Positions 21,691 through 45,429 of a DNA stretch of 64,000 nucleotides are shown here, one piece after another (the stretch's first letter is position 1; each line of letters starts with the position of its first letter). Below the pieces are notes generated by a model. The model was not told where the DNA came from. It did no database searches and saw only the letters and a list, made by a program, of their open reading frames with translations. The translations under genes were made by a program, and so were the position numbers. Source of the DNA: Rhyzopertha dominica. Its lineage: Eukaryota; Arthropoda; Insecta; Coleoptera; Bostrichidae. The stretch spans positions 55,198,023 to 55,262,022 of the forward strand of contig QCXZ01000003.1 in the NCBI GenBank assembly GCA_025024175.1. The letters run 5' to 3'.

Positions 21691-21879
21691 CTTGCAAAAA
21701 GAGTGCTGCTTGTAAAGGCTCATAATTGTAAACTGATAACTGACCAGACTATGGAAAAGATTGTAAATATTAGGTACATCTATCAGTATTTATCGAATAT
21801 AGATAATTGTCAAATAATAATTGCCCGATGTATTGTAAACAATTTCTTGGGAAAACGGCAATGGATTTTTTAACTTTTT

Positions 21880-21917
21880 CTATAATTCGAGCCATAATCA
21901 GCCCATCATCAGGACAC
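21880..21917 (-). ncRNA. Degenerate hammerhead-like motif in repeat family X
   Basis: Minus strand: CTGATGA, extra T, stem II GGGC(T)/GGCTC, but GAAT instead of the required GAAA. The core is therefore probably dead. Inverted partner of the motif at 22031. Confidence 0.45.
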
Positions 21918-22030
21918 CTATTAATTATTTATTCAGTTCTGCCATACGGCAGTCTGTAATAGTTTATTTTTTTCCCAATCATAGTTTTATGTTTTCGTCG
22001 TTTTGTTCCCTTTTATATCTGGAGTTAATA

Positions 22031-22070
22031 TGTCCTGACGATGGGCCGATTATGGCTCGAAATATAGGCA
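22031..22070 (+). ncRNA. Hammerhead-like motif in repeat family X
   Basis: TGTC faces GGCA (stem I with one G-U pair). The core is CTGACGA, extra T, stem II GGGCC/GGCTC with loop GATTAT, GAAA, then T and ATA. It is the same design as 17274-17313 and is paired with the inverted motif at 21880-21917. Confidence 0.62.
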
Positions 22071-23679
22071 AAGTTAAAAAATCAAACTTTTCTTTCTCGT
22101 ATCTTTCTCAAATAGGTGCGCTGATTTTAGGACAATAATCAGAAATAATGTATGTATAAATTCTTGATTATATCCGGATAAATAAATAAGAAGCAATATT
22201 TATTCTACAATTTCTAAAAGCTTTAAAATTTCGGGTCATCATAATTAACTATAATCAATCTGACGTTAATATGATAATAAACAATTTAAAAGCACTACGA
22301 ATAAATATACCTCGTGGTAACTATTATGTAATAGTAGAAAATATTGTATACCTACCGAAAGCAAAAAAAAAATATTCTTGGACTATGTTGTTCAGCAGCA
22401 GTTTTGTTTAATTAATACCTATACGTATTTAGTTGGCACACTTGCTTACCCTATGATTTTAACCATTACAGCTATAATTTTACTGAATTTTAAATAGGTA
22501 TATCTTATGCTCTAGTCGTATATCCTCTGCATCAGCTATCAAGACGGCACACTACACTTGGGATTGTTGTATAGACTATGGTAACACCATGACAGCATGT
22601 GTCGGTCTATCGGTCGTAGAAAAGATGTGTGCGTTAACTCGTATGTTACATTTATCTTTCGTTCGCACTATCGCAAGAAGCAATGCAAATATTCATACAT
22701 GACTTGATCTTCTCATGTAAAAAGACCCAGTAGCGAAGTATGCAGAGCATCAGATTACAACTATTACTAGTATTCAAAAGAAGNGCGGCTTCTCTTTTTA
22801 ATAAACAAAATCGGGACTCACGTGTAGGTCAAATTTTTAAACGTTTAGGTTATCTTAACTTATGCTTAACCTTTTTTATAGAGAGGCGGTTTAATAAGGA
22901 ATGTTTATTTCGAGTTTAGATTTTTGAAGTAAACAGTGTTTAAAAAGAAAATATAATGATCGATGTAACTAGATATATTTATTTATTGGTATATATTAAT
23001 GCTATTATTACCAGAATGAGAAGCAAAATAAATATTTGCTAGAGCCTTCTCTTTATTACTGTTATTAAAACTAAAACTAGAAACAATAGCATTATTGGTC
23101 CACTTTAAAGTAGTAAGAAATACTTGTGATAAAATATGTAAAATACCAACAAAATCGATCGTTAAATTCAGCGCCCAAACGGGGGCGAATCGTTTGGAAA
23201 TAAAAACTGCATGCAAACACGCTGGCGTAGAACGGACTGTCCGGACGCAAGGAAAATGTCACTGCGCGGCATAATAAAAAAAAACACATCGTCCTAAAGT
23301 AGTTCAAAATTGAAACACTCGTTTTTCAAACACTGAACACAGTGAAAAACGGAATTCATATTCGATTCGATATAATCGTATTAATTATACATATTTTTCC
23401 ACGCCCAGTATAAATCGATACACATGATCGTATTGTGACTACATATTAGTACAATGGTATTANTGCCTGAAAATACAGAGTATTTAGCTTATTTTTCACT
23501 GTTTGTTACNAAGTTGTCAAAAGAATGTGAACCATCCCTTTCCACAGATATAAATAGAAAATTACTAAGTAGGATACAAATAGTTTGTTTTATTAGTTAG
23601 TTTACAACAAAGCACCTTAGGGAAGAGGTAATCGCTCCACGTCAATCTTAAATCGGCAAACTTTGTTGGAGAGAAGTCT

Positions 23680-24960
23680 TAATACAAGTATGAATGTTTG
23701 CATTGCTTCTTGCNACAGTGCTAACGACAGATAAATGTAACATACGAGTTCACGCACACATCTTTTCTACGACCGATAGACCGACACATGCTGTCATGAT
23801 GTTACCATAGTTTGTACAACAATCCCAAGTGTAGCGTGCCGTCTTGATAGCTGATGCAGAGGATATACGACTAAAGCGTAAGATATACCTATTTAAAATT
23901 CAGTAAAATTATAGCTGTAATAGTTAAAGTCATAGGGTAAGCAAGTGTGCCAACTAAGTACGTATAGGTAGTAAGCAATTAAACGAAACTGATGGTGAAC
24001 GACATAGTCCAAGAAAATTCTTCTTTGCTTTAGGTAGGTATAGATATAACATTTTTTACTATTAAATAATACTTGCTACAAGCTATACCTATTCGTATTG
24101 CTTTTAAATTGTTTATTATCAAATTATCGTCAGATTGATTGTAGTCAATTCTCTAGACATTTAATGACTTGAACTTATAAAGCTGTTAGAAATTATCGTA
24201 GAATAAACATTGCTGTTTATTTATTTATCTGGATAAAATCAAGAGTTTAATGTACATTATTTCTGATTATAGTCCTAAAATCAGCGCATCTATTAGGGAA
24301 GGATACGAAAAAGAAAAGTTTGATGAAAAGCCGGAGAATATTTTTAAGTAAACGCGTCGTTAATTTAATTTTAGTTATCTAAAACTATACATAAACCAAA
24401 AGAAAGAAAAACAAAACAAATCAGTTGTACGACAGATGCTCAGGGCTAACGCGGAAATAACGTTTAATCCTTCATAGCGGCGAAAATATTAAAATACTAA
24501 CCTTTTCGCTGCCGCTTAGCGATCAGCTGATTCAGTCGAACAGATCGACTGTTACTTCTCTCACAGCCAGAACTGCCAGTACTATTGCAATTATAACATT
24601 ACGCTATTACACGTATTTCATACTTGTATTACATTTATCACACAATTCATTTTTCAAAACATTTTTGTTTTGTCCATATAAACCTAATTCTTTGTTCGGT
24701 TGGAGAGCTTCATTTTCGAAATATGGGGCATTCCACGCGAAGCGGACAGGTAAAAAAACTGTATGTTTCCGATTTTAGTAATATTTAAGTATGTTCTACC
24801 TATACATGCCCTTGATACGTGTACCAAATATTTTTGTAATATAATGATTGGTTAAGAAGTTAACGGACTTTGAAATTTTGACCAACCGGTGGATATGCAA
24901 GTAGGTACCTCAAAGCCGATTAGCAAGTCTTAAAATTATAGATTAAAATAATTAAACCAC
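23680..24960 (-). repeat. Repeat family X, right arm of palindrome 2
   Basis: Inverted copy of 20440-21690, including a conserved core at 23752-23790. Ends close to the cysteine-rich relic at 24.96 kb. Confidence 0.85.
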
Positions 24961-25180
24961 TGTGATTCAACATTGGAGCACGACTGGCCTTGACAACTAT
25001 AGTACGTGCAAAAGAACAAAACAATCCAACATTTTTGCAGTCGCATTTAGCACTAAATCCCTTTTTACAGTTGCAGAAAATTATTTTGAAGAGTTTATGA
25101 GGCCCAGGTGGGAGTAAAGTGTCTGGACTGGTTCCAATGTATTGTCGATCATCTTCCAACTACAGTCTTTGGATCTAGTT
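24950..25180 (-). pseudogene. Cysteine-rich C-terminal relic (CxCKKG...CxCKxxGLxCS)
   Basis: Minus-strand frame with TSPDTLLPPGPHKLFKIIFC, then CNCKKGFSAKCDCKNVGLFC and, after a one-base shift, SCQGQSCSN. Repeated CxC spacing resembles the cysteine-rich tails, broadly like CXC/TSO1 modules, found at the end of many uncharacterised transposon-associated insect proteins. Only this tail is present and a frameshift breaks it, so it is a relic. The family name is an inference from cysteine spacing. Confidence 0.55.
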
Positions 25181-25199
25181 GATAACCAAACCACACTTG

Positions 25200-27350
25200 A
25201 ATTCGATAATGTAATATTTATTTATTAATATTTACTGATTATTAAGAAACCGAATAAAATAACATACAACGCTAATTAAATGCTTCTTCCACAATCTTTG
25301 GAAAAAGTGTTACAAATAGAACATTCTAAATTTCAATAGATGTCTCCAATTTTTTATAACAGATTAGTAGTCAAATATGGCTAATAGATTTGCAGGTACC
25401 TACTAAAAAAAGTGTGTTTTATAAGATTTTTTAACTTGCTTGTACGCAGCATCTGGTATAATCTTTAAATCCTTGAGTGAAATAGTACATAAAATGAAAT
25501 ATTTTTATTCAGTTCTATTAGCTACAGCTAAAGATGCATATGTGAAATGCGTATGTTGCCTACCTACATTTCATATGATTATCTACAAAATACGGTAATA
25601 TTGACTGTTCGTTAGAAACTTATTTGAACCAGATATAACAAAGCCGAAATGTATATAATTATGAATTTAGCTGATTGATATTTTTATCGGGGATATGTTC
25701 TTAGAAAAGTTGAGGTCAATTAACCTAACAACATGTGACCTAAATGAAAAAAAAAAATTACTGCATATCTGTTGGTGATTTTCATCCCATAGTGAAAATG
25801 CATAATGGTATATACAGTGATGATCTAGTCATATTTCTTGGATGGCTTCTGTGGAAAAAAACATCTAATGTAAATTTGTAATTGAATAAATGTTCAGGAA
25901 GAGCCAGACTGGAGCCGAAACGTCCATGTCGTAAACTAATTGTTTCTTTCTAAGAACTATTCCTAAGAAAAAACAATCAGCTCACAAAAATGGTTCAGTA
26001 ATGATTGTAATACTATAAATTTTAGTTAGCAATTTTCATTATATTATTAACATTTTGGTTATTAACGGGCTAATAACTGTAGTAATTATCATTATTTTTC
26101 CAGATGTAAGTAAGTATATTCACTAAAATGGAAACAGATATTCCATACGAATTGATTATACCTATGCGGCAAGATAAAACAAAAGAAATATTTTGAAACA
26201 TAAATTGTTACAAAAATGTAATAGAATTGTGAAAGTCTTAATAGCGTAGTAGATGTACTTGAAATATAATAGATTAATAATTGTAATAAAACTGGCAACT
26301 CTATACTGGAACGCGGGGTGCGCCTGCTTCCGAACTTCCGACTTCAAAGCTGATGTCATACTTGAGGAATCTATTAACGACTGGCGGCCGGTGGTGGCAC
26401 GGTATTGTGCATAGTTGCCAAACATGCAATAATTAATGTACAAGTAGTGTTATTATTCTTAGACCTCAAAGACAACCATTAAAAGATAACTTGATTTCAG
26501 TGCGTATAGGATAAGGATTCAGCGTATTGAGAGATTTGACAAGTCGGATATACTGCAAACGAATAGTGTTAAAGAAAAAATTGTTGATTTCTCGCATTTT
26601 CCTGTTTTGTTATGTGCTAAGAATTATCAGCATCTATCTATCAGCATCTGCTTTATTAGTAATACATAAGTGTTTGCTGCTTATTGCTGAACGCTTTAAC
26701 CTTGGTAATAGGATTTGGCTGTAAAATAATTGAAATTTCATTTTTTCTGTATATACCTCTCCGTATGTTTAAATTTAATCTTACGCATGATCGACAGTTC
26801 CCAGACCATCGCTTCAAGTCGTAACTGGATCTGAAAANTAACTTTATTTATGTCAAACAAGAAATTGAACTGAACCGAAAAATNTATTGCTTCTTTGACA
26901 AAAGTGAATGTTCTCTTCAGTCTCTATTTCAGTTACAGTTTGTTTTTCTTTNTTTGTAGTGGGANATACTTTTTTGGTATAAATAAATTAAAATGTTTAA
27001 AAATTGATCATCTGAACGGAACCGTAAACGGAAAAGGAAAAAAACGTAATTTTTATCGAAACTAAAAAATGAAGTTTGAAACCCTGTTCCAGACAAAAAC
27101 ATTTTTATCGTTAAGTTATACTTGCTATCGGTCTTTCTTTTAAAACAGAATATAATCAAGTACCTATATATACGGTAGATACACATGAATTAGTAGGCGC
27201 AAAGCATAGTAATAATAAAAGAAAATCTTTTTATCGTTACTGCTTATAGATACAAATGTGTTTTTGGTAAAGTTCGCTAGTTGTTGCTTGTATTATCTAT
27301 CATCTACATACTACACAAATATCGCAATGATAGGACTTTTTATTACAAAG
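25200..27350. other. No recognisable gene
   Basis: AT-rich; several Ns at 26838-26966. A weak PLE-tail-like piece (GCCGAAACGTCC at 25914) lacks the hammerhead core. No coding frame was supported. Confidence 0.4.
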
Positions 27351-27354
27351 AAAA

Positions 27355-27560
27355 GGCAAAATAATTATTGCTAGGGTTTTGTCGATTAGCCTTCATATCA
27401 GCAGATATTTTACAGATTATCGCAACGGCTTTGATCAAATATAAAGTAGACATCCGAATTCATACACACATCTTTGTGCCGACCAACAGACCGGTACACG
27501 CTGTGATGGCGATGCCCATTACATGCTGGATTTTTAGAGTGGAGCCCTGCAAGTGCAAGT
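27355..27560 (-). repeat. Outlying relic of repeat family X with conserved core
   Basis: GGCAAAATAATTATTGCTAG matches the GCAAAATAAAT(A)CTTGCTAGAG landmark at 15540. On the minus strand GGTCGGCACAAAGATGTGTG and TATGAATTCGGATGTC carry the core. A frame of 71 codons overlaps but is not supported. Confidence 0.6.
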
Positions 27561-28239
27561 TGACACTAATTAACCACGGTTAATGAATAGTGTAGGTACC
27601 TAATGGACAACTTAGATCAATAAAGTTTCTTTCCTGCCACGCCAGTTTTGCTATTCAATAATCACTAGTTCAAAATCAGCTTGTTCTAGATAGTTTGAAA
27701 TTACTTATTTTATATATATTCGTCGACATCACAGACAAAGCTTTTTCTGTGTGACTGTAAAATAATTTAAGCTTTAAAATGTTCGATTATTATGCTATAC
27801 ATTGTAACGAAATATTTTTACATTTTTTTTTCTTTAAATGAATACCTATTACTGGTTAGCATATCTTAATTTGTTATTGAGGTAATAATGGTAATAGTTA
27901 AGATGGAAGTGACATACAGCTTAATAATATGTATCACTTTGGCGACTGGTAGGTACACATGTTATGATGGGTCAAATTTTTAGAGAAACAACCTAGGGAA
28001 GGTTGTACCAAGATCTTAAAGCGATTTATTTATTTTCTTCTAGATGTGCTTCATAGGTAATGTATAGGTAATACATATTTGTTTATAACTTTATAATTTA
28101 CGCTGAAGATAGAAAAAAAGTGCGTTTAATGGCGAAAAGCGCTGAGAAAGAGATTGAGTGAATTCGTTTTTTAAGTAAGTGGTTAATATATCTAGGGCCT
28201 TGTCAACAAGACAGAAAGTAAATTCAAGGTAGGTATACG

Positions 28240-28380
28240 TAGCCAAATTGTGAGTGCTTTTCGTTATCGTTATAATAAAAGAGAAATGCGACATTGGTAA
28301 ATCATTCATACACACATTTTCGATGACCGATAAACCGTTACGCGACTGTTTAGTGCATCGGCATGGCAACAAAGCGTCTG
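28240..28380 (-). repeat. Outlying relic of repeat family X with conserved core
   Basis: Minus strand: GGTTTATCGGTCATCGAAAA followed by TGTGTGTATGAAT and ATGTCGCATTTCTC. It lies about 150 bp upstream of the candidate first exon of the SET gene. Confidence 0.55.
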
Positions 28381-28517
28381 TCTAATATAACACGTGAGAT
28401 ACTTCTTAGTTCTTAGACTTAGTTACATACTTCGTTCCATCGTACATCAGGCGTCAGGCATCACGCTGTGGTCAATCTGTGAGTTGTGAGTTTAAAGTGA
28501 TTACTTTAGTTTCATTA

Positions 28518-28528
28518 TGGAGAGGAGG
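28518..28528 (+). CDS. Candidate first coding exon of the SET-recombinase gene
   Basis: ATGGAGAGGAG followed by the donor GTAAGG. The two left-over bases AG join the first G of the exon at 30841 to give arginine, and the reading frame then continues without a stop into the SET exons (M-E-R-R-C-R-N-K). The next exon has no in-frame ATG before the conserved region, so an upstream start is needed. The evidence is only the start, the donor and phase agreement over a 2.3-kb intron. Confidence 0.35.
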
Positions 28529-29041
28529 TAAGGATAACAATGCTAAATAAGTAGGAGGTTTGTATAGAACTGCTACCTATTTCTACTTTGATTGTGCAGC
28601 GATATTTATTGTGTGGTACAGAATATATGTAGAATAGTAATAATTAATCATTCTAGCAATATTGGATTCACAATTAAGTTTTTTCTTTTGATGCCTTATA
28701 TATGTATCTGTTCCCAATTGTGTTTGAAAAAAAAATATACAAACTTTGCTCATGTTATTTTATGTTGAATTTATTGAACTAATTGAGACAATAACACAAC
28801 TCGAGCTCTTTGCAGGTAGATATAAGTAATGTCCATGTAACGTCACGAAAATAAGATATTTGGTAAACCAACGTACATAGGTAATGAATAGGGAAATATG
28901 GGAAATACCTACCCCAGTTTTGTACGGAAGCAAAAAAATTTTTCTCGGATGAAATTAATGTCGCGTTAGCGAAAGTGAGTTGAAATAAATTTTAACGTAG
29001 TGACGTCAGACAACGAAACGTTGCCACATCGACGTTGAATA

Positions 29042-30214
29042 CTGGTGTGCTTCATTATGTGGGCAACCTCTCGGAATGTCAAATCTGGTTTAAAAATAAC
29101 ACTATTTTACTGTATAACTTTTTTAAATAACGCCCCCGCCTACTGAGATATTCACTCTTAAATAAGGAAGGCAAAAAATAGTTTTTCAAAAATATCTCTT
29201 ACAGTCTTACACCGGTTGATATAATTTCATCAAATTTGGTTATTATTATTTGAAGTGAAAACCGCTAAAATGATGCGCACATTTTGTAATAAATGTTTTA
29301 CGGCGGCAGTGAAACGACCAATTCCCCCCTCCCCACATTTTAACCTTTAACTTTAACACGGATAAGTATTTTTTAAATATGTTTTTTTTTATTCTTTGGG
29401 CCTTGCAAAGAGAAAAAGATACCATTTATTTATGCGGCAAAAGTGGACTCTTTCCGAGAAAATTACAGGTTGACATGTTCACTGTATAACCCATTGTTTT
29501 TATCAAATTGGCCGTGATAAATAATAAAAATTGTGATTGATCACTTCTCGTATTTAGTTGTTACAATAGGCGATCTTTAAAATAAAAAGTTTCAAATATA
29601 GAAAATCATTCAATGCAAACTAAAAATGCATGTCGGAGTACTCATTATATGAATATTCCATTATCATTATTTCATAATTTTTGAAGCAAATAATTTAAGG
29701 TACTAACAAAATGTCAGTGTAACAGTGACAATTAACACAGTTATTATTTATCACGGCCAATTTGATAAAAACAATGTGTTAGACAGTGAAATTGCCAACC
29801 CGAATATTCTACTGTAATTTTCTCGGAGAGAGTCCATTTTAGCCGCACGAACAAGGAGTATCTTTATTTAATTACAAGGCCCAAAGATCAAAACAACATA
29901 TATTTTTGAAAAAATACTTATCCGTTTAAAAGTTAAGGGTTAAAATGTAGGGGTTGGCCCCCTCTCGTCCGCACCAAAATGTTTATTAAAAATTTAGCGG
30001 CTTTTACTTCAAATTATAATAACCAAAATTTGATGAAATTGTATCAACCGGCCTAACAGATATTTTTCAACAACTATTTCCCTTCTCCCATACTTACGAC
30101 CGAATATCAGTAGGCGTGCGTTATTATGGGAAAAAAGTTATATAGTAAAATATTTTTATTTTTGCACCAATTTTCTGATTCCGAGAGATTGCCCACATAA
30201 AGCGGGACACCCTG
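29042..30214. mobile_element. Fold-back element with ~490-bp inverted arms
   Basis: Arm 29042-29545 and arm 29715-30214 are inverted relatives. Shared words are ATGTGGGCAA, CTCTCGGAAT, TTTTCTCGGA, GGGCCTTG and TTATCACGGCCAATTTGATA. The outer ends resemble CAGGGTGTCCCGC (right) and a decayed version (left). No transposase frame. It sits in what would be the first intron of the SET gene. Confidence 0.75.
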
Positions 30215-30840
30215 TGTGGTGTTCTTGACGCGTAGTGTAAAATGAGAAACCCTTCACATCTATTGTTAGATTAATGTAACGTGATAATCCTAATTCGAGA
30301 GTGATTGTATTGTTTATGGATAATTTACGGATAGCATAAAATAACAGGCAAAAATTGTTAATGTACCTATGCAGATTATGAATTAACCATTTCCTACATT
30401 CAACTCCTTTATTTGACATTGAAAAAAAAAATTCCGTGCAAAAATGATACAGTTCAGTTGAGATTATGTTTTAATATTAATTGCTGCATAGATTTATTAC
30501 ATCTTCTGGTTGTTTTACGAATCCGAAAATAATTTCTCTTTGCCAGTTAAGTTAATTATTTTTTCCCAAAGTTCTAGAACTTCTCGTACATGGGATAAGA
30601 TCGGCCACATCTCTTAATTGATCACCCTGTACATTATTGGTAACATGCTAACTCTATGTATTTAAGTTTTTTAGTGTACACTATTTTAGTGTGCCTAGGC
30701 TCCCTTGAATTTGAATTAATATCGCATCATAACGCATTTATAATAATGCGCATGCGTAAACTCGCCAGCCAAAGTAGACAGTAGATCATCTCTCCCTACC
30801 CTAGAGTCTTTTTTATAAACGTCAGTGTACATGTTCGCAG

Positions 30841-31694
30841 GTGTCGAAATAAGAATGTCGATGCTCCACTTCCACTTTCTGCACGGCATTTGGCCGAATT
30901 AGACGAACTTGCTACAGCTCTGGTATTAGATCCATATTTGGGAATAATTACCCACAAAATAAATACAAAATACAACTCAAGTTTGCCTAATGGTAGCTTG
31001 AAACGTATTTTAATGGGTTTTTTTAAACAACCGAATTACGATCTGGCATACAAAAGTTACGAGAAGGTTTTGTTTGAAAACATTACTACCTTCGCGGGAA
31101 AGACTGAATATCTGAAGCATATGGTATGAAAATGTGTTTTATTTTTAATATTAAATTAAAAATTATTTTAATATTTGTTTCAGGTAACATTATACTTAAA
31201 ACTTATTGATAAAAATTCCAAATTCGGAATAGAGGTTTGTACGGAGTATAGCAGAGAAAAATATTGTGGAGCAAAAATAATTGCAAACGAAAAAATAAAA
31301 AAAGGTGAAATGATGGAGGACTTAGTAGGCTTATATTCACCTTTAACCAATTGTGATGAAAGCATTATCACTACAGATGTGAATGACTTTTCTATCTTGG
31401 CTATAAAGAATGTAGATTGCCTTGTATTGGGCCCGTTATCTTTTGTTAATCACAGTTGCAAACCCAATGCGAAATACCACTTGGGCAACAATAAATTATA
31501 TTTAATTGCTACTACAACTATCGAACCTGGCGAGGAAATCACTGTGTATTATAGTAAAAATTTCTTTGGAAAGGGAAACATTTACTGTGAATGTAAAGAA
31601 TGCCGAAACCGAGGAACAACAAGGGGACGTAGAATGCTAAATGCGCTTCGTAATAATGCAAAACAAGATCGACTGAATATATGTACAGAAAAAA
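30841..31694 (+). CDS. SUV4-20-like SET domain exons
   Basis: Exon 30841-31123 contains LATALVLDPYLGIITHKINT, the N-terminal signature of SUV4-20/KMT5B-C enzymes. After a 60-bp intron, exon 31184-31694 contains FGIEVCTEYSREKYCGAKII, NDFSILAI, GPLSFVNHSCKPNAKY (NHSC, SAM-binding/active-site motif), EPGEEITVYYSKNFFG and the zinc-binding CECKEC of the post-SET. All key motifs are intact, so a working H4K20 methyltransferase fold is plausible. Translation reads on past 31694 to a stop at 31781-31783, but AAAAAAGTAAGTA there is a strong donor, and the alternative 202-codon end would lack further domains. Confidence 0.85.
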
Positions 31695-34600
31695 GTAAGT
31701 ATTTTGTTTGTACAGATTGGCGCTATAATAGAACATTTGTTATTGATGAAATTATGGGCTCTTTTTTATTAAATTCGCAGTGATACATGCATATATATTT
31801 TTCATCAATGCCAGAGTTTAGGATTTTGTTTTTAATATTTCAAACTGACTTATTTTTATATACAGGGTGATTCAAATTTGATGCTTACCATTGAATTCTC
31901 GGAAACGGTAAAAGATACTACATCAATTAAATTGGGGCATAATTGTTTACATATCTTGATGGTCTTCAATATTCTAAAGAGATAATTGGTGTTCTTGAAA
32001 ATTTAAAAAAGTATAAAAAACGGTATTTTAGAAGATTGTTTTTAACTTTTTTGTTTATATTTTTTTTGCATTAACGTAAATGCCTTCTTAAGGTAACTTT
32101 TTATGCTGCATCGGAATGGTGATCGGCTTTTATTTGTTTATAAAATGTTTTTTTTTCTACAAAACCATTATTATTTTTTTTACTTTCACGAAAACCAATG
32201 CAGAGAGACCAATTATCTTTCAGATTATTAAAGACCTACATAACACACAGCTTTGCCCCCATTTAACCGTCTTCGTATCATACCGTTGAGATTTGAATCA
32301 CTGTTTAGATAACCACTTAACCCTAGTTGACATGTTTGCTTCCTCTAGAAGACACAAGAGAAAAACGTTTGTATGATGTTTTTGCATATTTTCTTTATCT
32401 GTAAAAGTAGCATCTAAGACAGTAGCTGATTTATAAAGGAACGAATAAGTTTTTATTTTATAAAAAATAACCCCCTTAAGCAGTTTTTTTGTATCATGCA
32501 TACCTATTAGTGAAATATCATACAAGCTAAATGCGCCAACTTGTAGGTATTAATTGCTTTCTTCATGTTATCATTTTTTCCATATTTAATTTTCAGTACC
32601 TGAATCTTCTCCTAATCAGACAATCCTGAACCACCTTTTAGTCAACAACATTGACATAGCAGAACAAGGTAGTTTTATTTGAATATCTAAGTTTTATGAA
32701 TTTTTTATATAATAAATTTTAGTGGAAATTGAAGAGTCACCAAACTCGAAACCTGCGAATTTTACACGCTATGTCATAACACCCACATCCAGTAGCCATG
32801 CAGCCACTAGGAGCAATAAGTTAAAGCCAAGAATTCTTTTTAAAGATGAGATTGAGAAAGGTTATTAAGCATAATTTTTTGTCGATATAATCTCACACTG
32901 CAAATTATTAACTTCGTATGAATCATGCAATTGCTATAATCAGTTCTTTTTACTATGTATGTAAAAGGGTTTGTTAAAGTGATAAATTTTCAAATCCAAA
33001 AGAAAGTTAATAAGCATATGATAGGTACATTTAGTATTGTTTTAAAAGCCACTATAGGACCTCTTTCACTTGCAGTAACGCTTTAGTTTGAAAAGCGTTT
33101 GGTTGCAGCATCTAAATTTATTTGATTTAATAGGCTTCGATAATGTAGCCTAAAGTAAACAAGTTTTATTTAGATTAAGGACCTGTTTGAAAAATTACTA
33201 TCTACTATGCAAAGCAATTGCGTGATGTTTTACTAATAGAAATATAATTTGCAGGGAGGTTACACTGTACACTGCTTCTAATTAACTACAACATGTTTAC
33301 AGCAACAAAACCACCAGCTGCACAAGAGGAGAGTAATGCTCTTTTAAGCACTACACAGCAAATTGTGACTCCTGAAATATGTATTGGTGAGTATGTTGAA
33401 TAGCTTAGTACTGATAAAAAATGCACACTTGATACTGTTGAATTTGTGTTGCAAAAGATAAAAATACAGTAATACAATAAGTTTTTTTCCAAAATGTTAA
33501 CATTAGATTCAATCGTGTGTGTATTATTCCAACAGGACCCAGTGAAACTGTGATCAGTGAACAACCTCATGCATACAGTAAAGTTTCTGATTGGCTCGAA
33601 TCGAACATGATAGCTAAATATTCAGGTATGTGATCCTTGTGTTATATGCAACTACACATGTGATGAATGCTTAACCAACTGTGATAGTTCTAAATTTAGT
33701 TCCACTTTAATTCAGTTTAAAACAAACCTTTTTTCTGTATGAAGTATTCACAAAGTTCAGCATTATTTATTATATATTATGTATTTTTAAGTAATTATTA
33801 TCAGTATATTATTCTCTATCAGGAGAAAGGGCATGCAGTATGAAGTCACCACCTAATAAGCAGCGCAGTGCAAGATGCATTACGAAGAATAAGAATAATG
33901 TTGAATCTACAGTAGAGGTTGAAGAGCCCTTTGAGTACAGCTCTGAAAGCTACAAGCCAAGCTCTGGTAGCAGTAAGGCTACATCAGAAAAAGATTATAG
34001 TGAAGGTGAAATCCCACTAAATAATGAAAAACAAAATAAAAAAACTAAAACAAACTTGGACAGCGGTATGCAGTTGAGGAAGCCTCTTGAGGAATTGAAA
34101 ACCATTGTAATACAACCAAATTCGTTATTAAACAGTGCAATGGAAATTGATGTAGATCAGAATTTTGATACTGAAATTAATTCTATGATAAGAAATGCTA
34201 CTGAAAAAAAGCCTTTGTCTTCATTAGTAATACCTGGAAAGAAACAGGGCCAATCTTCGAAACGGCAGTGTTGCTTATTTTGTCAAAAACTGTGCACTCA
34301 ATTACCTCGTCATTTAAGAAGGAGGCATGCTAATCAAGAAATAGTGGCCAAAGCAGAGAGCTTGCCTGCAGATTCTACAGAAAAAAAAGAAATTTGGAAA
34401 CAACTACGTTTGGCAGGCAACTTTAAACATAACTGCCGCGTCTACAGTTCGGGAGTAGGTCAGTTGGTAGTTAAAAAACGCCCATCAAATTATAATACAT
34501 GTGCAGAAGACTACTGCCCATGTCCGAACTGTGGGCAGTATGTGAAATCGGTCAATTTATGTAGACATGCAAATTACTGCGTTAAAGGTGATGCCACGAA

Positions 34601-37071
34601 AATAACAAAAATTCGACCATATAGTCGAATGTTGCTGCCTGTAAGTAAACAGGCTAGCCCGACTTTGAGACTATATGTATTGTGCACAATGGTAGATGAT
34701 GATATAACAAGAATAGTTAATAGAGATGACTTAATTTGCCTATTTGGTTCTTTTCTGTGTGAAAAGTACAGGATGGCTGTAACTGCTAGACATAAAGGTT
34801 ACATATCACAGAGACTACGAGAATTAGGTAGACTGATGCTAAAGGTAAGGGAACTGGACTCTACAGTAAAAGAACTTTCAAACTTGTTCCATCCTGCCAA
34901 GTTTGATCTTCTAATAAGTGCTACAAAGGTTGTAACTGAAGAGTTTAACAAACCTTCGTTTGCGCTGAAAATAGGACACAGCATAAACGCATGTACCTCA
35001 GTATTGAGTGGTCAGTATATTAGATGCAATGAAATGGAGAAACTTGGAGAAGTATCTCACTTTAACCACCTATTTAATACTGAATGGAAATATAGAGTAT
35101 CATCTATTGCTTTAAAGCAAATTAGCGATTCAAAGTATAACAAGGAAATACAATTACCTCTTGCTGAAGATGTTCAAAAGCTTACATCCTATATTATAGA
35201 GCAGGAAGAGTTGTTACAGGCTCAGCTCCTACAAGAAGACGATTACGGTATTTACCTAAGACTAGTTAGGATAATATTATGCCGCCTAATTTTATTTCAA
35301 CCGTAAACGTGTAGGTGATGTGGACAAATTCACAATTGAGCAGTTTGAGAATAGAAATAAGGCAATGTAATAAAGACATACTTTCCTCATTGTCTGTCCA
35401 AGAACGAAAACTGTCACAATACTTTGTCCATGTTGAGATAAAAGGGGAAACGTGGAAGAAAAGTACCTCTGCTTATTCCAAAGCAAACAGAATCTTGTCT
35501 TTTGTTGCTTATTGGAAGTAGAGCTCGCATTGGAATACCTCCCACCAGTACTTATGTATTTGGAACAAAAAAAGGTGGCTTTGTAAGAGGATGTGATGCT
35601 CTTAGGACTGTAGTTGCATCTTGTAAACTTAAACATCCAGAATTTATGACGTCAACTCGATTTAGAAAGCAAATAGCTACTATGTCCCAAATTATGTCTT
35701 TACGTCAGCATGAAATGGAAGGCTTGGCTAACTTCATGGGGCATGATTACTCAGTTCACAAAAAATTTTTACCGCTTGCCAGAATCTGCCTTGCATATTG
35801 CAAAATTTAGTAAGCTGCTTTTAGCAGTGGAAGGTGGTAACGTAAACAAATATAAAGGCAGAAATCTAGACAATTAGATATTGACGATATTGAAATACAA
35901 GCTAGTGATAATTCTGATGATGATATAAATCCCGAATACGACGACAGAAGTACCAGTGATGAACTTGCAATGCCAGGATCAAGTCAGCAAACAGCCTTGA
36001 GTACTACACCTCAGAAACGTACAGGTAAAAAAGCCAAGGTATGTTAGTTCACAGATGATAATGGTATAAATACACATATTTGTTACGACGTCAAAAAATT
36101 ATAAAATTATTTATGAGTTCAATAATGCCTTTTCTCCAAATACCTTTATTTAATAAGGTAACCGCTTTTCGAGGTAATTAATGAAACCTCATCCTCGGAC
36201 CATCTGGTACAAAAAGAAACATAAATCTACATACATTTAAATACATTTAAATTCTACAATCAATTTAGCTTACAATAATCTATTGTAGCCAATGGTCCGA
36301 GAATGAGGTTCCAGTAATTACCTCCAAACCAATTACCTTATAAAATAAAGGAATTTGGAGAAAAGGCATTATTGTACTCATAAATAATTATATTTACTCC
36401 AAAGTAGGGTCTACTACATATATTCCATTAATTTTTAGGTATTGTTTCGAAATGTGTTAGAATAAGTCATATTATATGGCCATAACAATCTTCATATATA
36501 AAATGTTCCACATCTTTCCCCGTTTGCTGCTTCTAACATTACTTCAAAAGAAGAAACAAGAATACATGTTTGATTTGCCAGTTTTATGATATGGTTGTAA
36601 AAACAATTTTCAGTGTGTGCTTCGGTTGTTAACAAAATGGCCCTTACACTCAAAATCAAAAGGTCGTCAAATTTTGCTTTTAACAGTGCAAGAAATTTAG
36701 ATTTCACCTATAAGAAGTGTGCATATTGAAGGGAGATTTTCAATTGTTAATGAATTTTTCTCAAAAAATTGCTAAAGAGCATAAACACTTTTTAATAGAA
36801 GTAAAATTGTTTCTTATAAACTGCTAGCAGTTGGGTGTGTGATGTAAAACTTAAAAATTTTATTACAGTTTGTGATGAAGAAATGGACCAAAGAAGAAAA
36901 TGCTGCCGCATATAGACATCTGTCTCATTATTTAAAAAACAGAGACTTAGGACTCCCTGGAAAGCAAGAGTGTTAAAAATTCAATCCCTTGAACCATGTT
37001 TGCAACACAGAAAATGGGACTCCATTAAGTTTTGGGTGAAAAATCATTTAAAAATGAAAACAGTTTATTGA
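30841..37071 (+). CDS. Fusion gene: SUV4-20-like SET domain joined to zinc-finger/tyrosine-recombinase-like protein
   Basis: Proposed exons are 30841-31123, 31184-31694, 32597-32668, 32723-32860, 33303-33386 (or from 33255), 33536-33625, 33823-36038 and 36869-37071. All have GT/AG borders. Internal introns 2-6 are all phase 1, and every short exon stays open in the one frame that links the SET exons to the large exon. The product would be about 1,200 residues: SET methyltransferase, acidic/serine-rich linker, two C2H2-like fingers, a tyrosine-recombinase-like region and a short basic C-terminal domain. Known SUV4-20 enzymes di/trimethylate histone H4 Lys20 in chromatin. Here the partner region looks transposon-derived (Crypton-like), so this may be a domesticated gene or a mobile element with a captured SET domain. 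Five one-base indels interrupt the large exon. Separate neighbouring genes remain possible without transcript evidence. Confidence 0.65.
31863..32303. mobile_element. TIR element (441 bp) in an intron of the SET gene
   Basis: CAGGGTGATTCAAAT at 31863 faces ATTTGAATCACTG at 32291-32303. Arms of about 135 bp share GGGGCA, GATAATTGGT and related words. No coding capacity. A clean target duplication was not found. Confidence 0.7.
32597..33625 (+). CDS. Short linker exons of the fusion gene
   Basis: Exons 32597-32668 (encoding PESSPNQTILNHLLVNNIDI), 32723-32860 (EIEESPNSKPANFTRY..., basic near its end), 33303-33386 (ATKPPAAQEESNALLSTTQQ) and 33536-33625 (ETVISEQPHAYSKVSDWLES). Each begins after AG, ends before GT and has phase 1 at both ends, so each could also be skipped without shifting the frame. 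Lengths are 72, 138, 84 and 90 bases. The composition is low-complexity and polar; no domain recognised. Four consecutive short exons without a stop in the required frame is the main support. Confidence 0.6.
33823..36038 (+). CDS. Zinc-finger and tyrosine-recombinase-like exon (Crypton-like)
   Basis: Open without interruption from 33823 to 35306, with an internal ATG at 33840. C2H2-like CLFCQKLCTQLPRHLRRRH starts near codon 144 of the ATG frame, and a second cluster CPCPNCGQ...CRHANYC lies near codon 227. The downstream region follows a tyrosine-recombinase pattern once frames are joined: NRKRVGDVDKFTIEQF (first catalytic Arg, 35299 on), STRFRKQIATMSQ (second Arg), LANFMGHD (His) and KKFYR (Tyr). 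One-base indels at about 35295-35298, 35363-35367, 35444-35447 (GGGG), 35766-35770 (TTTTT) and 35871-35876 break the frame; at least three are in short homopolymer runs. A smaller plus frame at 35502-35810 carries the recombinase C-terminal core. The acidic end closes with the donor AAGGTATGT at 36036-36044. Confidence 0.75.
36106..36388. mobile_element. TIR element (283 bp) in the last intron
   Basis: ATTATTTATGAGT at the left faces CTCATAAATAAT at the right. The arms extend about 100 bp with a few mismatches (AATAATGCCTTTTCTCCAAA in both). The loop holds a duplicated ATACATTTAA. No transposase. Perfect boundaries with the flanking AT-rich intron are hard to fix. Confidence 0.78.
36869..37071 (+). 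CDS. Last exon of the fusion gene (basic C-terminal domain)
   Basis: Acceptor TTATTACAG precedes TTTGTGATGAAGAAATGG in phase 0, matching the donor at 36039. It encodes KKWTKEENAAAYRHLSHYLK, then GLPGKQEC. After a one-base loss at about 36970 (GTGTTAAAAA instead of GTGTTTAAAAA in the second copy) it continues to KWDSIKFWVKNHLKMKTVY and a TGA at 37069-37071. The second copy at 39484 lacks the opposite base (TGGACTCC versus TGGGACTCC), so only the combination of both gives an open exon. That points to sequencing error. Confidence 0.6.
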
Positions 37072-39383
37072 TAAGTAAGTACAACTTAACATAGTGGTCT
37101 TTTGTTTTAATATTACAGAAGTTAAGGTGTTAATGTTAAATTTTGTTAGTGGCTTTTATTTTGTAATCAGCTTAAAATAGGATATATTGGTAGAGATTAA
37201 AAAGTACATCTACGATCATCATAAAAAGTATCAATGTATAGAACAAAGATATCTTTTTCAAAAAATGTAGATACCAACATTTGTTGGCATAATGATCAAA
37301 TCATATTTCTGTATCTAAAATATTGATATATGAGTATGTATATGATGGTCTAGTTATTGTGTTAGACGAAAAAGTTATAGCACTTAAGAAGTACGTCGAT
37401 AGCTTACAGAATAAGAAACAGGATGTTCAGTTTTCTAGTGTTGAGCTTAAAAACTTGCATATTTTTATATAGAACTACCAATCTGTTATGCCAGATTTTG
37501 ATAGCAAATCAAATTGCAAGAAAAAAACTACCAAAAAATTCATATGTCCTAAAACTTTTATTAGAAACATAATTTCAAAATAAAACATATAATTGAGTAA
37601 GGACAACGCAACCGTTCATTTTAGAACATATGCTTTTTTAATAGTTAATTTGTTTATAATTTGATGGTGTAATTAAAGTCTGGCGTAAAAGGTTGGAGGT
37701 TGTATTAAAAGAATGTTGGTTTTGTTCGCTACTAAAAACTGAACACTGTATAGACACTTTAAATTGTGTTGTCGTTTACTCTTGGCTGCTGTAACTTTTG
37801 TTCCAAACATTTTTCTTTAGGATTTTGACGTAAAAGATGTCGATTGGGTGAGCACGATAAACTGGACCACCCTGTACCATCGGAATTTTTGAAAATAAGT
37901 GAGAAAGCATTACTCAAGCCACTGTAACACCATGCATCGTAGATTCCTCGCTTACCAGAATATCATCGTTCTTGATATTGTTGTAATAATATTTTTTACC
38001 TATATTTTCATTAATAGTATGAATATTTGATAGTGATATATTAATAGTATAACTATCTGATATGCTTCAACCATGATTAGATGTATTCCCTTGTATAGTG
38101 ATTTTACTTTCTGTTAATAACCAAGTTAATTTCAATTGTTCTTTTTTCAGACAGTTCATTGTTGTGTGGAACTTGGAAGTGTCAAAGAGCAAAATAAAAA
38201 TTACACGCATATGTTTGTGTTATTTTCTTATACCTTACCAACTCCATCAGTATATGCCAGAAATAATTTATGTGACAATAAAAGAATTTCAAAATCATAG
38301 TTTTTTCTTGTTTGTTCACAATGTTTACAACCCTTAACAAATGTTTAATAGAACCCATAAAGGAATTTGAATAACGAAATACAACTATGTACATGGATTG
38401 TATGAATGCAGGTACGTACACATGAATATTTATTAAGATTATTTTAAATTAAGCTTTACATGTGGTGCACAATATAAATGCAAGTTATATAGACAACAAA
38501 TGCGACCATTGTTGTTACAAATATTTTTACTCAATAAGGGCTAACCTTTAGTGATGTGGAATCGTTCAATCTCTGTTGGCTCTTGATTTGGGTGTATACT
38601 GTGCTAGTACGTCCCATCATTTGCTTTTAACTATACGAGGTGCAACTAAGATATTACATTCAAGGCAAATTAATGACTTTTATGTAATATGTATGATACA
38701 AAAGCACTTATAGCTATTTTCTTTATTTTATGTTAAGTTAATTGCTTTCGGTTCATAAACAACCAAAAGGTTACAAAAATTTAAAAAAAAGTGAAATAAC
38801 ATTGCCTGCTTACTAGTGGTTTTGTATTTACAATTATTAAAAATCTACTGTTCAGATGGCAAATCCACTATTTTTTTAAATATCCATCGAGCAACGCTGG
38901 GTGATCCACAGTTTCAGTCCAGTGTTTTAGTCATTACTACTGTCACTAAAAGTGGAATACCGTAGCGCAACGTCCGCCATATCTGGAGTAAAAGTTTTGG
39001 CGGAAACACTCAAATTTCCCAATGTTTGTTTCTCTCTACCTTGATCAGTAATGGGTTTCCATTATTGATCTTGGTCTTATTACAGTTCCAATCTAAATAA
39101 AATTAACATTGCAAAATTTGAATGTTCTCGGAAAACTTTTACTCCAAATATGGCGGATGTTGCGGTACTGTATTCCATTTAGTGCTGTAGTCCTTACTAC
39201 AGGGTGCTACAGCAGCGTTCTGCAGAAAAGGACGGTACGACGGTTTTCCAAGAAATACACATTGTCGTATGTATAACACTATATTACATGAGCTGACTCG
39301 TCCGCCATATTGAGGCCACTGACAGTTCGAGCTCTGGGTATTGTTTACGGGAGTCGGTAGTCCGTGTTTAAAAATTTTATCTT
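36877..39383 (+). repeat. First copy of a 2.5-kb duplicated segment, ending at the assembly gap
   Basis: Nearly identical to 39484-41985. Differences are almost all one-base indels in short runs (for example AAGTACGTCGATAG versus AAGTACTCGATAG). Ends exactly at the first N. Apart from the last exon start and the TIR element at 38934, it holds no recognised gene. Frames such as 38098-38337 are not supported. Confidence 0.95.
38934..39199. mobile_element. TIR element (~266 bp)
   Basis: TACTACTGTCACTAAAAGTGG on the left faces CCATTTAGTGCTGTAGTCC on the right. The arms continue with CCGCCATATCTGGAGTAAAA and its inverted near-copy for about 100 bp. Non-coding. Repeated at 41535-41801 because of the duplicated segment. 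Confidence 0.75.
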
Positions 39384-39483
39384 NNNNNNNNNNNNNNNNN
39401 NNNNNNNNNNNNNNNNNNNNNNNNNNNNNNNNNNNNNNNNNNNNNNNNNNNNNNNNNNNNNNNNNNNNNNNNNNNNNNNNNNN
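39384..39483. other. Assembly gap (100 N)
   Basis: Exactly 100 Ns, a conventional placeholder of unknown size. The flanks on both sides are the end and the start of the same 2.5-kb sequence. Confidence 0.99.
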
Positions 39484-41985
39484 GAAGAAATGGACCAAAG
39501 AAGAAAATGCTGCCGCATATAGACATCTGTCTCATTATTTAAAAAACAGAGACTTAGGACTCCCTGGAAAGCAAGAGTGTTTAAAAATTCAATCCCTTGA
39601 ACCATGTTTGCAACACAGAAAATGGACTCCATTAAGTTTTGGGTGAAAAATCATTTAAAAATGAAAACAGTTTATTGATAAGTAAGTACAACTTAACATA
39701 GTGGTCTTTTGTTTTAATATTACAGAAGTTAAGGTGTTAATGTTAAATTTTGTTAGTGGCTTTTATTTTGTAATCAGCTTAAAATAGGATATATTGGTAG
39801 AGATTAAAAAGTACATCTACGATCATCATAAAAAGTATCAATGTATAGAACAAAGATATCTTTTTCAAAAAATGTAGATACCAACATTTGTTGGTATAAT
39901 GATCAAATCGTATTTCTGTATCTAAAATATTGATATATGAGTATGTATATGATGGTCTAGTTATTGTGTTAGACGAAAAAGTTATAGCACTTAAGAAGTA
40001 CTCGATAGCTTACAGAATAAGAAAACAGGATGTTTCAGTTTTCTAGTGTTGAGCTAAAAACTTGCATATTTTTATATAGAACTACCAATCTGTTATGCCA
40101 GATTTTGATAGCAAATCAAATTGCAAGAAAAAAACTACCAAAAATTCATATGTCCTAAAACTTTTATTAGAAACATAATTTCAAAATAAAACATATAATT
40201 GAGTAAGGACAACGCAACCGTTCATTTTAGAACATATGCTTTTTAATAGTTAATTTGTTTATAATTTGATGTGTAATTAAAGTCTGGCGTAAAAGGTTGG
40301 AGGTTGTATTTAAAAGAATGTTGGTTTTGTTCGCTACTAAAAAACTGAACACTGTATAGACACTTTAAATTGTGTTGTCGTTTACTCTTGGCTGCTGTAA
40401 CTTTTGTTCCAAACATTTTTCTTTAGGATTTGACGTAAAGATGTCGATTGGGTGAGCACGATAACTGGACCACCCTGTACATCGAATTTTTGAAAATAAG
40501 TGAGAAAGCATTACTCAAGCCACTGTAACACCATGCATCGTAGATTCCTCGCTTACCAGAATATCATCGTTCTTGATATTGTTGTAATAATATTTTTTAC
40601 CTATATTTTCATTAATAGTATGAATATTTGATAGTGATATATTAATAGTATAACTATCTGATATGCTTCAACCATGATTAGATGTATTCCCTTGTATAGT
40701 GATTTTACTTTCTGTTAATAACCAAGTTAATTTCAATTGTTCTTTTTTCAGACAGTTCATTGTTGTGTGGAACTTGGAAGTGTCAAAGAGCAAAATAAAA
40801 ATTACACGCATATGTTTGTGTTATTTTCTTATACCTTACCAACTCCATCAGTATATGCCAGAAATAATTTATGTGACAATAAAAGAATTTCAAAATCATA
40901 GTTTTTTCTTGTTTGTTCACAATGTTTACAACCCTTAACAAATGTTTAATAGAACCCATAAAGGAATTTGAATAACGAAATACAACTATGTACATGGATT
41001 GTATGAATGCAGGTACGTACACATGAATATTTATTAAGATTATTTTAAATTAAGCTTTACATGTGGTGCACAATATAAATGCAAGTTATATAGACAACAA
41101 ATGCGACCATTGTTGTTACAAATATTTTTACTCAATAAGGGCTAACCTTTAGTGATGTGGAATCGTTCAATCTCTGTTGGCTCTTGATTTGGGTGTATAC
41201 TGTGCTAGTACGTCCCATCATTTGCTTTTAACTATACGAGGTGCAACTAAGATATTACATTCAAGGCAAATTAATGACTTTTATGTAATATGTATGATAC
41301 AAAAGCACTTATAGCTATTTTCTTTATTTTATGTTAAGTTAATTGCTTTCGGTTCATAAACAACCAAAAGGTTACAAAAATTTAAAAAAAAGTGAAATAA
41401 CATTGCCTGCTTACTAGTGGTTTTGTATTTACAATTATTAAAAATCTACTGTTCAGATGGCAAATCCACTATTTTTTTAAATATCCATCGAGCAACGCTG
41501 GGTGATCCACAGTTTCAGTCCAGTGTTTTAGTCATTACTACTGTCACTAAAAGTGGAATACCGTAGCGCAACGTCCGCCATATCTGGAGTAAAAGTTTTG
41601 GCGGAAACACTCAAATTTCCCAATGTTTGTTTCTCTCTACCTTGATCAGTAATGGGTTTCCATTATTGATCTTGGTCTTATTACAGTTCCAATCTAAATA
41701 AAATTAACATTGCAAAATTTGAATGTTCTCGGAAAAACTTTTACTCCAAATATGGCGGATGTTGCGGTACTGTATTCCATTTAGTGCTGTAGTCCTTACT
41801 ACAGGGTGCTACAGCAGCGTTCTGCAGAAAAGGACGGTACGACGGTTTTCCAAGAAATACACATTGTCGTATGTATAACACTATATTACATGAGCTGACT
41901 CGTCCGCCATATTGAGGCCACTGACAGTTCGAGCTCTGGGTATTGTTTACGGGAGTCGGTAGTCCGTGTTTAAAAATTTTATCTT
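39484..41985 (+). repeat. Second copy of the 2.5-kb duplicated segment, starting at the assembly gap
   Basis: Begins directly after the last N with GAAGAAATGGACC, the same sequence as 36877, and ends with AATTTTATCTT, the last bases before the gap. It then continues into unique sequence (TGGAGTACATTTTAC). Includes a copy of the last exon of the fusion gene and of the TIR element (41535-41801). Confidence 0.95.
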
Positions 41986-42318
41986 TGGAGTACATTTTAC
42001 NTACAAAAACGAGAAACATCTAAAAACCACGAAGGCAATTAGGTAAGGATCTCATTAAGTGGTTTTGTTAAATAACCAAATATGTCTTTAATATCAGTGT
42101 TTTTTATTTAAAGGACTGTGAGACAATTAAAGTGCCTATCATGATATACTAACCCAATTGCCATCCGTCGTTGCTTAGTGGTTTTGTCGTTTTCATCTTA
42201 AAAAAGCCTCCAAACTGAAAATATTATGGGTGACTGCCCATTCCCATAAACAAAACATGCAGTTCAATCTGTCAGTGCTCAATGAGCCACAATATGCCGG
42301 ACGAGTCGGCAATGATAT

Positions 42319-42780
42319 CACAGCATAGGGAAACCAGCAAGCTCACTCAAACGGCGGCACTTTGATCTTAGTAAGTGATGTTTTGCGACATATGGTGGGG
42401 TTGTAGTGGGGGTGGGTACCCGATGTCACAATGCTCGCGAGCCAATTGCCTGACCAGGTCCGGATTTAAAAATTTGTTATCGGATAAAAATAATAAAATA
42501 GTCAAAAAGAATACGTTTAAATAATGTTTAATTTAATTCACCGACCTTCCATATTCACATTCATTGCACTAAACGGTGGACCTCAGCATAAAAAATGCTG
42601 TGTTTGAACCACGAATAAAATTTCCACAATCCGGCCCTGGAATATCGGCGCNCACGCGACCATTGCACGAACGATACTGACGCTCTGCATCCGGAGAACA
42701 TGGCGGAATTATAGCTTAGGATGCTTCGAGTGCACTTACGATTTTGGGCGGAGTGCGCCTGCTGGTTTTCCTATGCTGTG
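42319..42780. mobile_element. TIR element (462 bp), CACAGCATAGG ends
   Basis: Left end CACAGCATAGGGAAACCAGC and right end, read inward, CACAGCATAGGAAAACCAGC; about 27 of the first 30 bases agree. No transposase frame inside. The flanks AATGATAT and GTAATATA are not an exact duplication. The superfamily is not assigned. Confidence 0.75.
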
Positions 42781-42784
42781 GTAA

Positions 42785-44775: not shown

Positions 44776-44900
44776 CTCAAAATTGGAGATGGTTTATATT
44801 GGTAATACATTCACAACGTATATCGGTCGTTGAAAAGACGTGTGTATGAATCAATATGTCGCATTTCTAAGAACCAATAAAAATACTGATACTTGCACAG
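44775..44900 (+). repeat. Outlying relic of repeat family X with conserved core
   Basis: TTATATTGGTAATACATTCA, then TATCGGTCGTTGAAAAGACG, TGTGTATGAATCAATATGTC and GCATTTCTAAGAACCAATAA; the last words match 13200-13225 as well. Confidence 0.65.
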
Positions 44901-45429
44901 ATACCTTGATTTTGCTTTCTCTTTGTAAACGAAGAGTCGATTCTATGCAAATTAAAGATACAGACACTATTATTTATAAATTTTTGATCATTCGAATGTG
45001 TATGGGATATGTTATCAGTACATAGTTATTAGTACTTTTTGAAATTCTAAACATCGCGGTCTATCTCGATTTTCAACTCTACCAGACACCGTCGTGGTGA
45101 AACAAGTTAACCATTTATCTAAGATATTTTGCGAAGATACTGACTTATCCAATTTGGCCATGTTTTGTTCTTCGTTTTTTATAGGTACGTTATGTGACTT
45201 ATCATAATCTTTCATCTTCCATTTTTGGCGCCTTCCGGTTCGATTCGTTTCGGACGAACTTGGACGCCATTTTTTTTGTAGTGGACTTTGTCCACTTTAA
45301 TGCCGTACCTAAAATGGAGAAAAAATGTATCTTAATTTACTGTCAGTTGGATTAGGTAAGTGAATAACACTTCGAAGCTAAAAATAACACGTCTATTGAG
45401 CCTTTTACACAAAACGAAAACGGTAATTA

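What the first reader, a model, noticed from the sequence alone, without database searches (positions are those of the whole stretch)
28518..37071. SUV4-20-like SET methyltransferase apparently spliced to a Crypton-like tyrosine recombinase
Seen: intact SET motifs (NHSC, CECKEC) in two exons. Four following short exons are all phase 1, all open in the required frame and bordered by GT/AG. A large exon then carries C2H2-like fingers and an R...R...H...Y recombinase-like pattern. Known: SUV4-20 enzymes methylate H4K20, and Cryptons use a tyrosine recombinase with DNA-binding modules. Inference: this is either a domesticated recombinase targeting a chromatin writer, or a mobile element that captured a SET domain to set the chromatin state at its insertion site. 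I know of no standard SUV4-20 gene with this architecture.
Basis: partly seen in the sequence, partly recalled or inferred. Interest (0 to 1): 0.88.

Follow-up and report, generated by a model that had tools for sequence, protein, structure and literature searches.

The report
Mobile element carrying a histone methyltransferase
In an unnamed animal genome, probably an insect, a DNA-moving enzyme (a tyrosine recombinase) appears to be fused to a histone-modifying enzyme, and the gene sits in a 38,000-base unit whose ends recur at other places next to GT repeats; because relatives in fish and sea urchin carry a different enzyme of the same histone pathway, such elements may write chromatin marks where they act.

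Summary
SUV4-20 (KMT5B)-type SET exons join through four phase-1 exons to a zinc-finger tyrosine recombinase (YR). In the window copy the YR exon is broken by single-base differences after about 35.29 kb; a second copy (C41) reads through, with a predicted product of 1,219 aa. A relative's predicted structure has the XerH/Cre fold.

New: (1) The gene lies in a 38.2-kb block (12096-50294). Its right end occurs at 4 genome sites and its left end at 6 (two sharing one flank); all ten junctions border GT tracts, and GGCGACC clusters at both ends. This is a mobile-element family; 2 of 4 paired insertions carry the fusion gene. (2) 29 of 121 YR relatives, in fish and sea urchin, carry an N-terminal SET of another family, KMT5A/SET8. 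Both belong to H4K20 methylases. (3) KMT5A-like expansions reported in 2023 in Hydractinia and sea urchin fit this layout.

Not shown: a fused transcript, methylase activity, or that this YR moves the element. Best reading: a giant Crypton-like YR element whose recombinase carries a chromatin writer. New variant of a known kind.

The parts
12096..50294 (.). 38.2-kb mobile unit (block) that contains the fusion gene
   Evidence: collinear with C41:27630102-27593990, flanks differ; ends recur in the genome
12096..12700 (.). left end; 6 full-length copies in the genome at 97-100%, each preceded by a GT tract of 7 bp or more
49800..50294 (.). right end; 4 copies in the genome at 99-100%, each followed by a GT tract and a different flank
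12121..12193 (.). three GGCGACC sites (+, +, -) near the left end
50131..50260 (.). three GGCGACC sites (+, -, -) near the right end
28517..28527 (+). exon 1 (start codon; rests on frame and donor site only)
30841..31123 (+). exon 2: SUV4-20-type N-terminal domain
   Evidence: aligns with the host Suv4-20 N-terminal exon
31184..31694 (+). exon 3: SET and post-SET, SUV4-20/KMT5B type
32597..32668 (+). linker exon 4, phase 1
32723..32860 (+). linker exon 5, phase 1 (weak donor GTTATT)
33255..33386 (+). linker exon 6, phase 1
33536..33625 (+). linker exon 7, phase 1
33823..36038 (+). exon 8: two zinc fingers and tyrosine recombinase; frame broken after about 35.29 kb in this copy, open in the C41 copy
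36869..37071 (+). exon 9: C-terminal helical domain (WTKEE...RHLSH), with one frame break in this copy

Best explanation
The window holds one copy of a giant (38-kb) DNA mobile element of the tyrosine-recombinase type. Its key gene makes a fusion protein: a SUV4-20-type SET methyltransferase, a linker, two zinc fingers, a two-domain YR and a C-terminal helical domain. I propose that the zinc fingers and the YR core-binding domain recognise the GGCGACC arrays at both ends, that the conserved R, R, H and Y residues exchange strands between a circular form of the element and a GTGTGTG tract of the chromosome, and that the SET domain methylates nearby nucleosomes (H4K20, by homology), so that donor or target chromatin favours the reaction or the new insertion is kept quiet. 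The SET part probably came from a genomic, intron-containing SUV4-20 copy. Shown: domains, exon frames, element ends, GT-bordered insertions, several copies. Inferred: the fused transcript, the circular form, that this YR moves the element, and every SET function.
For: Open 906-aa frame over 8 exons; SET of the KMT5B family; XerH/Cre fold of relative P0005; catalytic R 125, R 118, H 119, Y 114 of 125; unbroken second copy; 8 of 9 substitutions between the two copies in 33825-35303 synonymous, P 2.6e-5, or 1.3e-3 for transitions only; SET N-terminal of YR in 29 of 29 SET-bearing relatives among 121; block with different flanks at its two full copies; ends at 4 and 6 sites, all bordered by GT tracts; GGCGACC three times in each terminal 200 bp, against 1 of 4863 random pairs for any complex 7-mer. 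Precedent: zinc-finger YRs go with insertion of large units into microsatellites in crustaceans (PMC10871703, abstract and passages).
Against: No transcript data. The window copy of the YR is broken. Two of the four paired insertions show no YR of this family and no SUV4-20-like SET, so the ends do not need the gene in cis. The splice chain is not unusual under relaxed rules (80 of 200 shuffles). A 74% relative of the left end (C3:18.56 Mb) shows no clear GT tract. The KMT5A-like SETs of relatives have ND for NH in the 28 of 29 where the motif was found, so SET catalysis may not be needed there. The window SET shows no close kinship with the C7/C44 SETs.
Confidence: 0.6

Rival explanations
1. 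Passenger model: the SET-YR gene was carried along inside a larger element that another enzyme moves, and the GT preference belongs to that enzyme.
For: Two of four paired insertions lack a detectable YR and SET; only two copies of the gene exist in the genome search, plus one decayed YR copy elsewhere.
Against: No other recombinase or transposase domain in 10 block ORFs tested by Pfam, of 31 listed; no ORF of 120 aa or more in 9.9 kb of one short copy; the YR is under purifying selection.
Confidence: 0.2
2. Domesticated host gene, like SETMAR: a SUV4-20 copy fused to a recombinase whose zinc fingers now serve as a DNA-binding part, with catalysis lost, later copied as part of a 38-kb block.
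For: Low copy number; catalytic half broken in the window copy while SET, linker and zinc fingers are open; selection on the YR exon.
Against: The catalytic residues are intact in the C41 copy and conserved across the family; the gene lies in a unit with recurring ends; SET-YR genes are multicopy and 98.4-99.8% identical at six loci in Alosa.
Confidence: 0.12
3. Two independent neighbouring genes: a SUV4-20-like gene ending after exon 3 and a recombinase starting at the ATG near 33.84 kb.
For: The Littorina relative P0001 starts with a similar Met-Lys and has no SET; relaxed splice chains are common by chance.
Against: Five phase-1 junctions with open frames; linker GC 0.40 against 0.28; SET and YR in one protein in 29 of 121 relatives; SUV4-20-like SET and YR remnants also follow each other on one strand at C7 and C44.
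Confidence: 0.08

Closest known systems
Crypton YR DNA transposons (Kojima and Jurka 2011, PMC3212892)
   Same: YR is the only recombinase recognised; short direct repeats (here GTGTGTG) border the unit, as in fungal Cryptons; no long terminal inverted repeats found.
   Different: Animal Cryptons have no C-terminal domain and no terminal repeats according to the paper; here there is a C-terminal domain, an N-terminal SET, box II Thr for His, introns, and a length of 38 kb.
Fungal Starship giant YR elements (search listings only)
   Same: Tens of kilobases, YR gene, units of varying inner content with common ends.
   Different: Animal genome; no DUF3435 match in the Pfam scans of this family; a histone-modifying module is fused to the YR.
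Endogenous nimaviruses with zinc-finger YRs (PMC10871703, abstract and passages)
   Same: Arthropod hosts; YR with C2H2 zinc-binding domain; insertion into microsatellites.
   Different: They use (GGTTA)n or other sites and carry viral genes; no viral gene was recognised here; homology of the YRs was not tested.
KMT5A-like genes with N-terminal SET in Hydractinia and sea urchin (PMC10368294)
   Same: N-terminal SET of an H4K20 methylase family and a long conserved C-terminal part; P0013 is a sea urchin protein of this layout with our YR.
   Different: SET is KMT5A-type there and SUV4-20-type here; the paper does not mention a recombinase.
Host Suv4-20 (KMT5B)
   Same: N-terminal domain, SET, post-SET cysteines, phase-0 intron at the same place to within one codon.
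   Different: Window SET is 41% identical to the host gene, which is itself 74% identical to human KMT5B; fused to a recombinase.
SETMAR (recalled, not searched)
   Same: SET fused to a transposon enzyme.
   Different: SETMAR has a mariner DDE transposase; here a YR, inside a unit with recurring ends.

Membership tests
SUV4-20 (KMT5B/C) methyltransferase | SET domain closest to KMT5B/C, with N-terminal domain and post-SET cysteines | tested here: met
SUV4-20 (KMT5B/C) methyltransferase | H4K20 methylation | not testable with these tools
   needs an enzyme assay
Tyrosine recombinase | two-domain fold and conserved catalytic residues | tested here: met
   (fold on relative P0005)
Tyrosine recombinase | catalytic half in one open frame | tested here: inconclusive
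   broken in the window copy, open in the C41 copy
Crypton | R-H-R-Y tetrad | tested here: not met
   box II His is Thr in 119 of 125; my assignment of the boxes rests on recalled YR motifs
Crypton | short direct repeats at the termini | tested here: inconclusive
   GTGTGTG at both ends, but the target itself is a GT tract
Crypton (animal) | no C-terminal domain after the YR | tested here: not met
   exon 9 domain; helices 663-720 in the model; criterion from PMC3212892
Crypton | YR groups with Crypton YRs in a tree | not tested
   no Crypton reference sequences were fetched
Starship | DUF3435 captain | tested here: not met
   no such match in Pfam scans; fungal host not met either
Mobile element | same ends at several sites with different flanks | tested here: met
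Mobile element moved by this YR | YR acts on the ends | not testable with these tools
   needs binding and recombination assays

The most novel reading that the evidence does not exclude
Animal genomes hold giant YR elements whose own recombinase carries a histone H4K20 methyltransferase. Different lineages recruited different H4K20-type SET families (SUV4-20 here, KMT5A/SET8 in fish and sea urchin and probably in hydrozoans), while some molluscan relatives carry BRCT domains instead. Such elements may need to control nucleosomes or DNA-damage signalling at the recombination site, and a large share of the expanded KMT5A-like genes of animals would then be transposon proteins.
Probability: 0.45. 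Interest if true: 0.93.

Novelty: new variant of a known kind. Interest (0 to 1): 0.86.

Why it matters
If true, a mobile element writes histone marks with its own recombinase, a direct way to prepare or silence its site. Repeated recruitment of SET domains of H4K20 methylases makes a question testable: why this mark? It offers a new reading of the KMT5A-like expansions reported in Hydractinia and sea urchin, and a YR that may target GT microsatellites.

Tried and rejected
Simple alleles: I first took the C41 copy for the other haplotype, but the shared block ends abruptly at 12096 and 50294 with different flanks. Host Suv4-20: rejected, the canonical gene is elsewhere. Window frame breaks as proof of decay: not accepted. 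The two near-identical stretches around the 100-N gap (36877-39383 and 39484-41985) differ by 19 events, 17 of them single-base indels, so assembly error is possible; not settled. Shared SET origin with fish: rejected; blastp of the window SET part against the 123 proteins held finds no SET of a YR relative, only a 23-residue match to P0031 at E 0.34, and the window YR lies in another part of the tree. C7 and C44 as further SUV4-20-YR elements: suggestive only. SET and YR remnants are about 10-11 kb apart on one strand; C7 has stops; for C44 the profile finds only the last part of the YR; other RT-like ORFs (my reading) lie between. Long terminal inverted repeats: best match 10 bp. Viral-contig scan: 57 pattern matches, none a relative. 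The SET part as protein query gave only 2 hits, so absence there means little. Codon positions against the decayed YR copy: 58, 56 and 80 changes at positions 1, 2 and 3, a mild third-position excess. A FastTree of 7 SET sequences did not join the window SET with C7/C44: too few, too long branches to tell one capture from two. Rfam scan of the window: one tRNA only.

Full report
1. What is in the window. The first exon is 11 bases and rests on frame and donor site only. Exon 3 is a SET domain (Pfam 5.8e-13) of the SUV4-20 family (KMT5B 2.6e-29; the best match outside KMT5B/C is NSD2 at 1.7e-06). A further exon at 36869-37071 holds the C-terminal domain of the recombinase.

2. Is the splice chain more than chance? 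With strict splice rules of my own 3 of 200 Markov shuffles reach four exons (observed 5); with relaxed rules 80 of 200 do (observed 6). This is modest support. Linker exons have GC 0.40, introns 0.28. Better support comes from relatives (point 5).

4. The mobile unit. The window is C3:55198023-55262022 of a 479-Mb genome in 138 contigs. Window 12096-50294 is collinear with C41:27630102-27593990, and both flanks differ as far as compared; a 100-N gap lies about 0.5 kb beyond the left edge in C41. The right end (49800-50294) occurs 4 times at 99-100%; all four run into a GT tract and then into four different flanks. The left end (12096-12700) gave 13 matches, 6 of them full-length at 97-100%. 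All six are preceded by GTGTGTG or a longer tract; two C41 copies share one flank, three others differ from it and from each other, and the sixth (C3:22.5 Mb) is GT throughout the stretch printed. The best of the seven partial matches (74%, C3:18.56 Mb) shows no clear GT tract. Paired ends give lengths of 38.2 kb (window), 36.1 kb (C41:27.6 Mb), 32.5 kb (C3:16.8 Mb) and 14.8 or 19.8 kb (C41:32.2 Mb). The last two share the right 586 bp and some inner pieces with the window but show no YR of this family and no SUV4-20-like SET (none in the SET list either). GGCGACC occurs 9 times in the window (1.13 expected; 0 of 100 shuffles reach 9), 6 of them within 165 bp of the two ends in mirrored orientation. 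I chose the motif after looking at the ends, so I ran a control: 1 of 4863 random pairs of 200-bp stretches shares any complex 7-mer three times on both sides. GT tracts of 7 bp or more with 5 bp on either side cover 0.56% of window positions. Whole-genome counts are lower bounds by the tool's own note.

5. Relatives. 29 of 121 YR relatives carry a SET domain, in all 29 N-terminal of the YR. It is KMT5A/SET8-like (fish P0036 3e-26; sea urchin P0013 7.6e-12; these two were compared with the PDB). The window SET finds no SET match among the YR relatives by blastp. In the 28 where the motif was found it reads ND, not NH, so their catalysis is in doubt; the window has NHSC. In the shad Alosa sapidissima six annotated loci are 98.4-99.8% identical over 1,147-1,251 aligned residues, and two more are 98.9% identical to each other over 999, a pattern of recent copying. 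Two oyster proteins have BRCT domains instead (P0025, P0028). In a FastTree of 92 YR sequences, drawn without support values and rooted at midpoint, the C41 YR lies in the same part as Myzus, Harmonia and Armadillidium proteins, next to unnamed P0107; the fish SET-YR clade is elsewhere, and the sea urchin SET-YR lies apart from the fish. So two SET families, both of H4K20 methylases, were joined to the same YR family.

6. The host gene. Canonical Suv4-20 is at C41:1.636 Mb; its SET is 74% identical to human KMT5B, while the window SET is 41% identical to either. By my reading of the sequences, host and window genes have a phase-0 intron at the same place to within one codon, which fits capture of genomic DNA rather than cDNA. 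Two further loci, C7:81.2-99.9 kb and C44:921.1-907.4 kb, have SUV4-20-like exons followed by YR remnants on the same strand; they may be older elements of the same design or chance neighbours.

7. Literature. Kojima and Jurka 2011 (PMC3212892; abstract and passages) define Cryptons; the text has no 'SET domain' or 'methyltransferase'. The Hydractinia paper (PMC10368294; section 9 whole, other passages) reports up to 65 KMT5A-like genes in Hydractinia, 24 in Hydra and 61 in sea urchin; most of the Hydractinia and sea urchin ones have an N-terminal SET, and the longer genes of these two share a conserved C-terminal end; 'recombinase', 'integrase' and 'Crypton' do not occur in its text. P0013 is a sea urchin protein of that layout, so I infer that this C-terminal end is the YR; the paper's own sequences were not fetched. 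PMC10871703 (abstract and passages) links zinc-finger YRs to insertion of large units into microsatellites. Four searches combining SET, KMT5A/SETD8 or SUV4-20 with YR terms and one on giant YR elements and microsatellites listed no paper whose title or abstract start describes such a fusion; only open-licence papers are held and the listed papers were not all read.

8. Mechanism. Shown: parts, ends, GT-bordered insertions, copies. Inferred from the YR family: strand exchange through a circular form. Inferred from homology alone: H4K20 methylation. The link between YR and ends is indirect: the gene lies inside the unit, no recombinase or transposase domain was found in the 10 block ORFs tested of 31 listed, and insertion at a microsatellite fits known YR units.

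Noticed in passing
54222-55511 (+), 61967-63850 (-): Long ORFs that look like Penelope-like reverse transcriptases (label recalled, not searched), outside the 38-kb unit.
   Followed up: no
36877-39383 and 39484-41985: A 2.5-kb stretch with the last exon is present twice around a 100-N gap; 19 differences, 17 single-base indels. The C41 copy has a similar doubling and gap.
   Followed up: partly
8751-8824 (-): tRNA-Thr (anticodon TGT) gene, outside the unit.
   Followed up: no
G000:C41:26807148-26808716: A decayed YR copy, about 80-91% identical in DNA to parts of the window YR exon, without the SET part.
   Followed up: partly
L004 and L005 (C1:28651633 and C1:28661627): Another YR family of the same genome: two nearly identical 715-aa open frames 10 kb apart, 29% identical to the window YR; no SUV4-20-type SET within the 4-kb loci.
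   Followed up: partly
P0025, P0028 (oysters), P0100 (Mercenaria): YR relatives with N-terminal BRCT domains (P0100 by its precomputed Pfam entry only), suggesting that the N-terminal module is exchanged between lineages.
   Followed up: partly
12500-25000: Many internal direct and inverted repeats of 0.2-1.3 kb within the unit; some recur in the shorter copies.
   Followed up: no
L021 (C41:1635685-1636469): Canonical Suv4-20 gene of the genome, useful as reference for the captured SET.
   Followed up: yes
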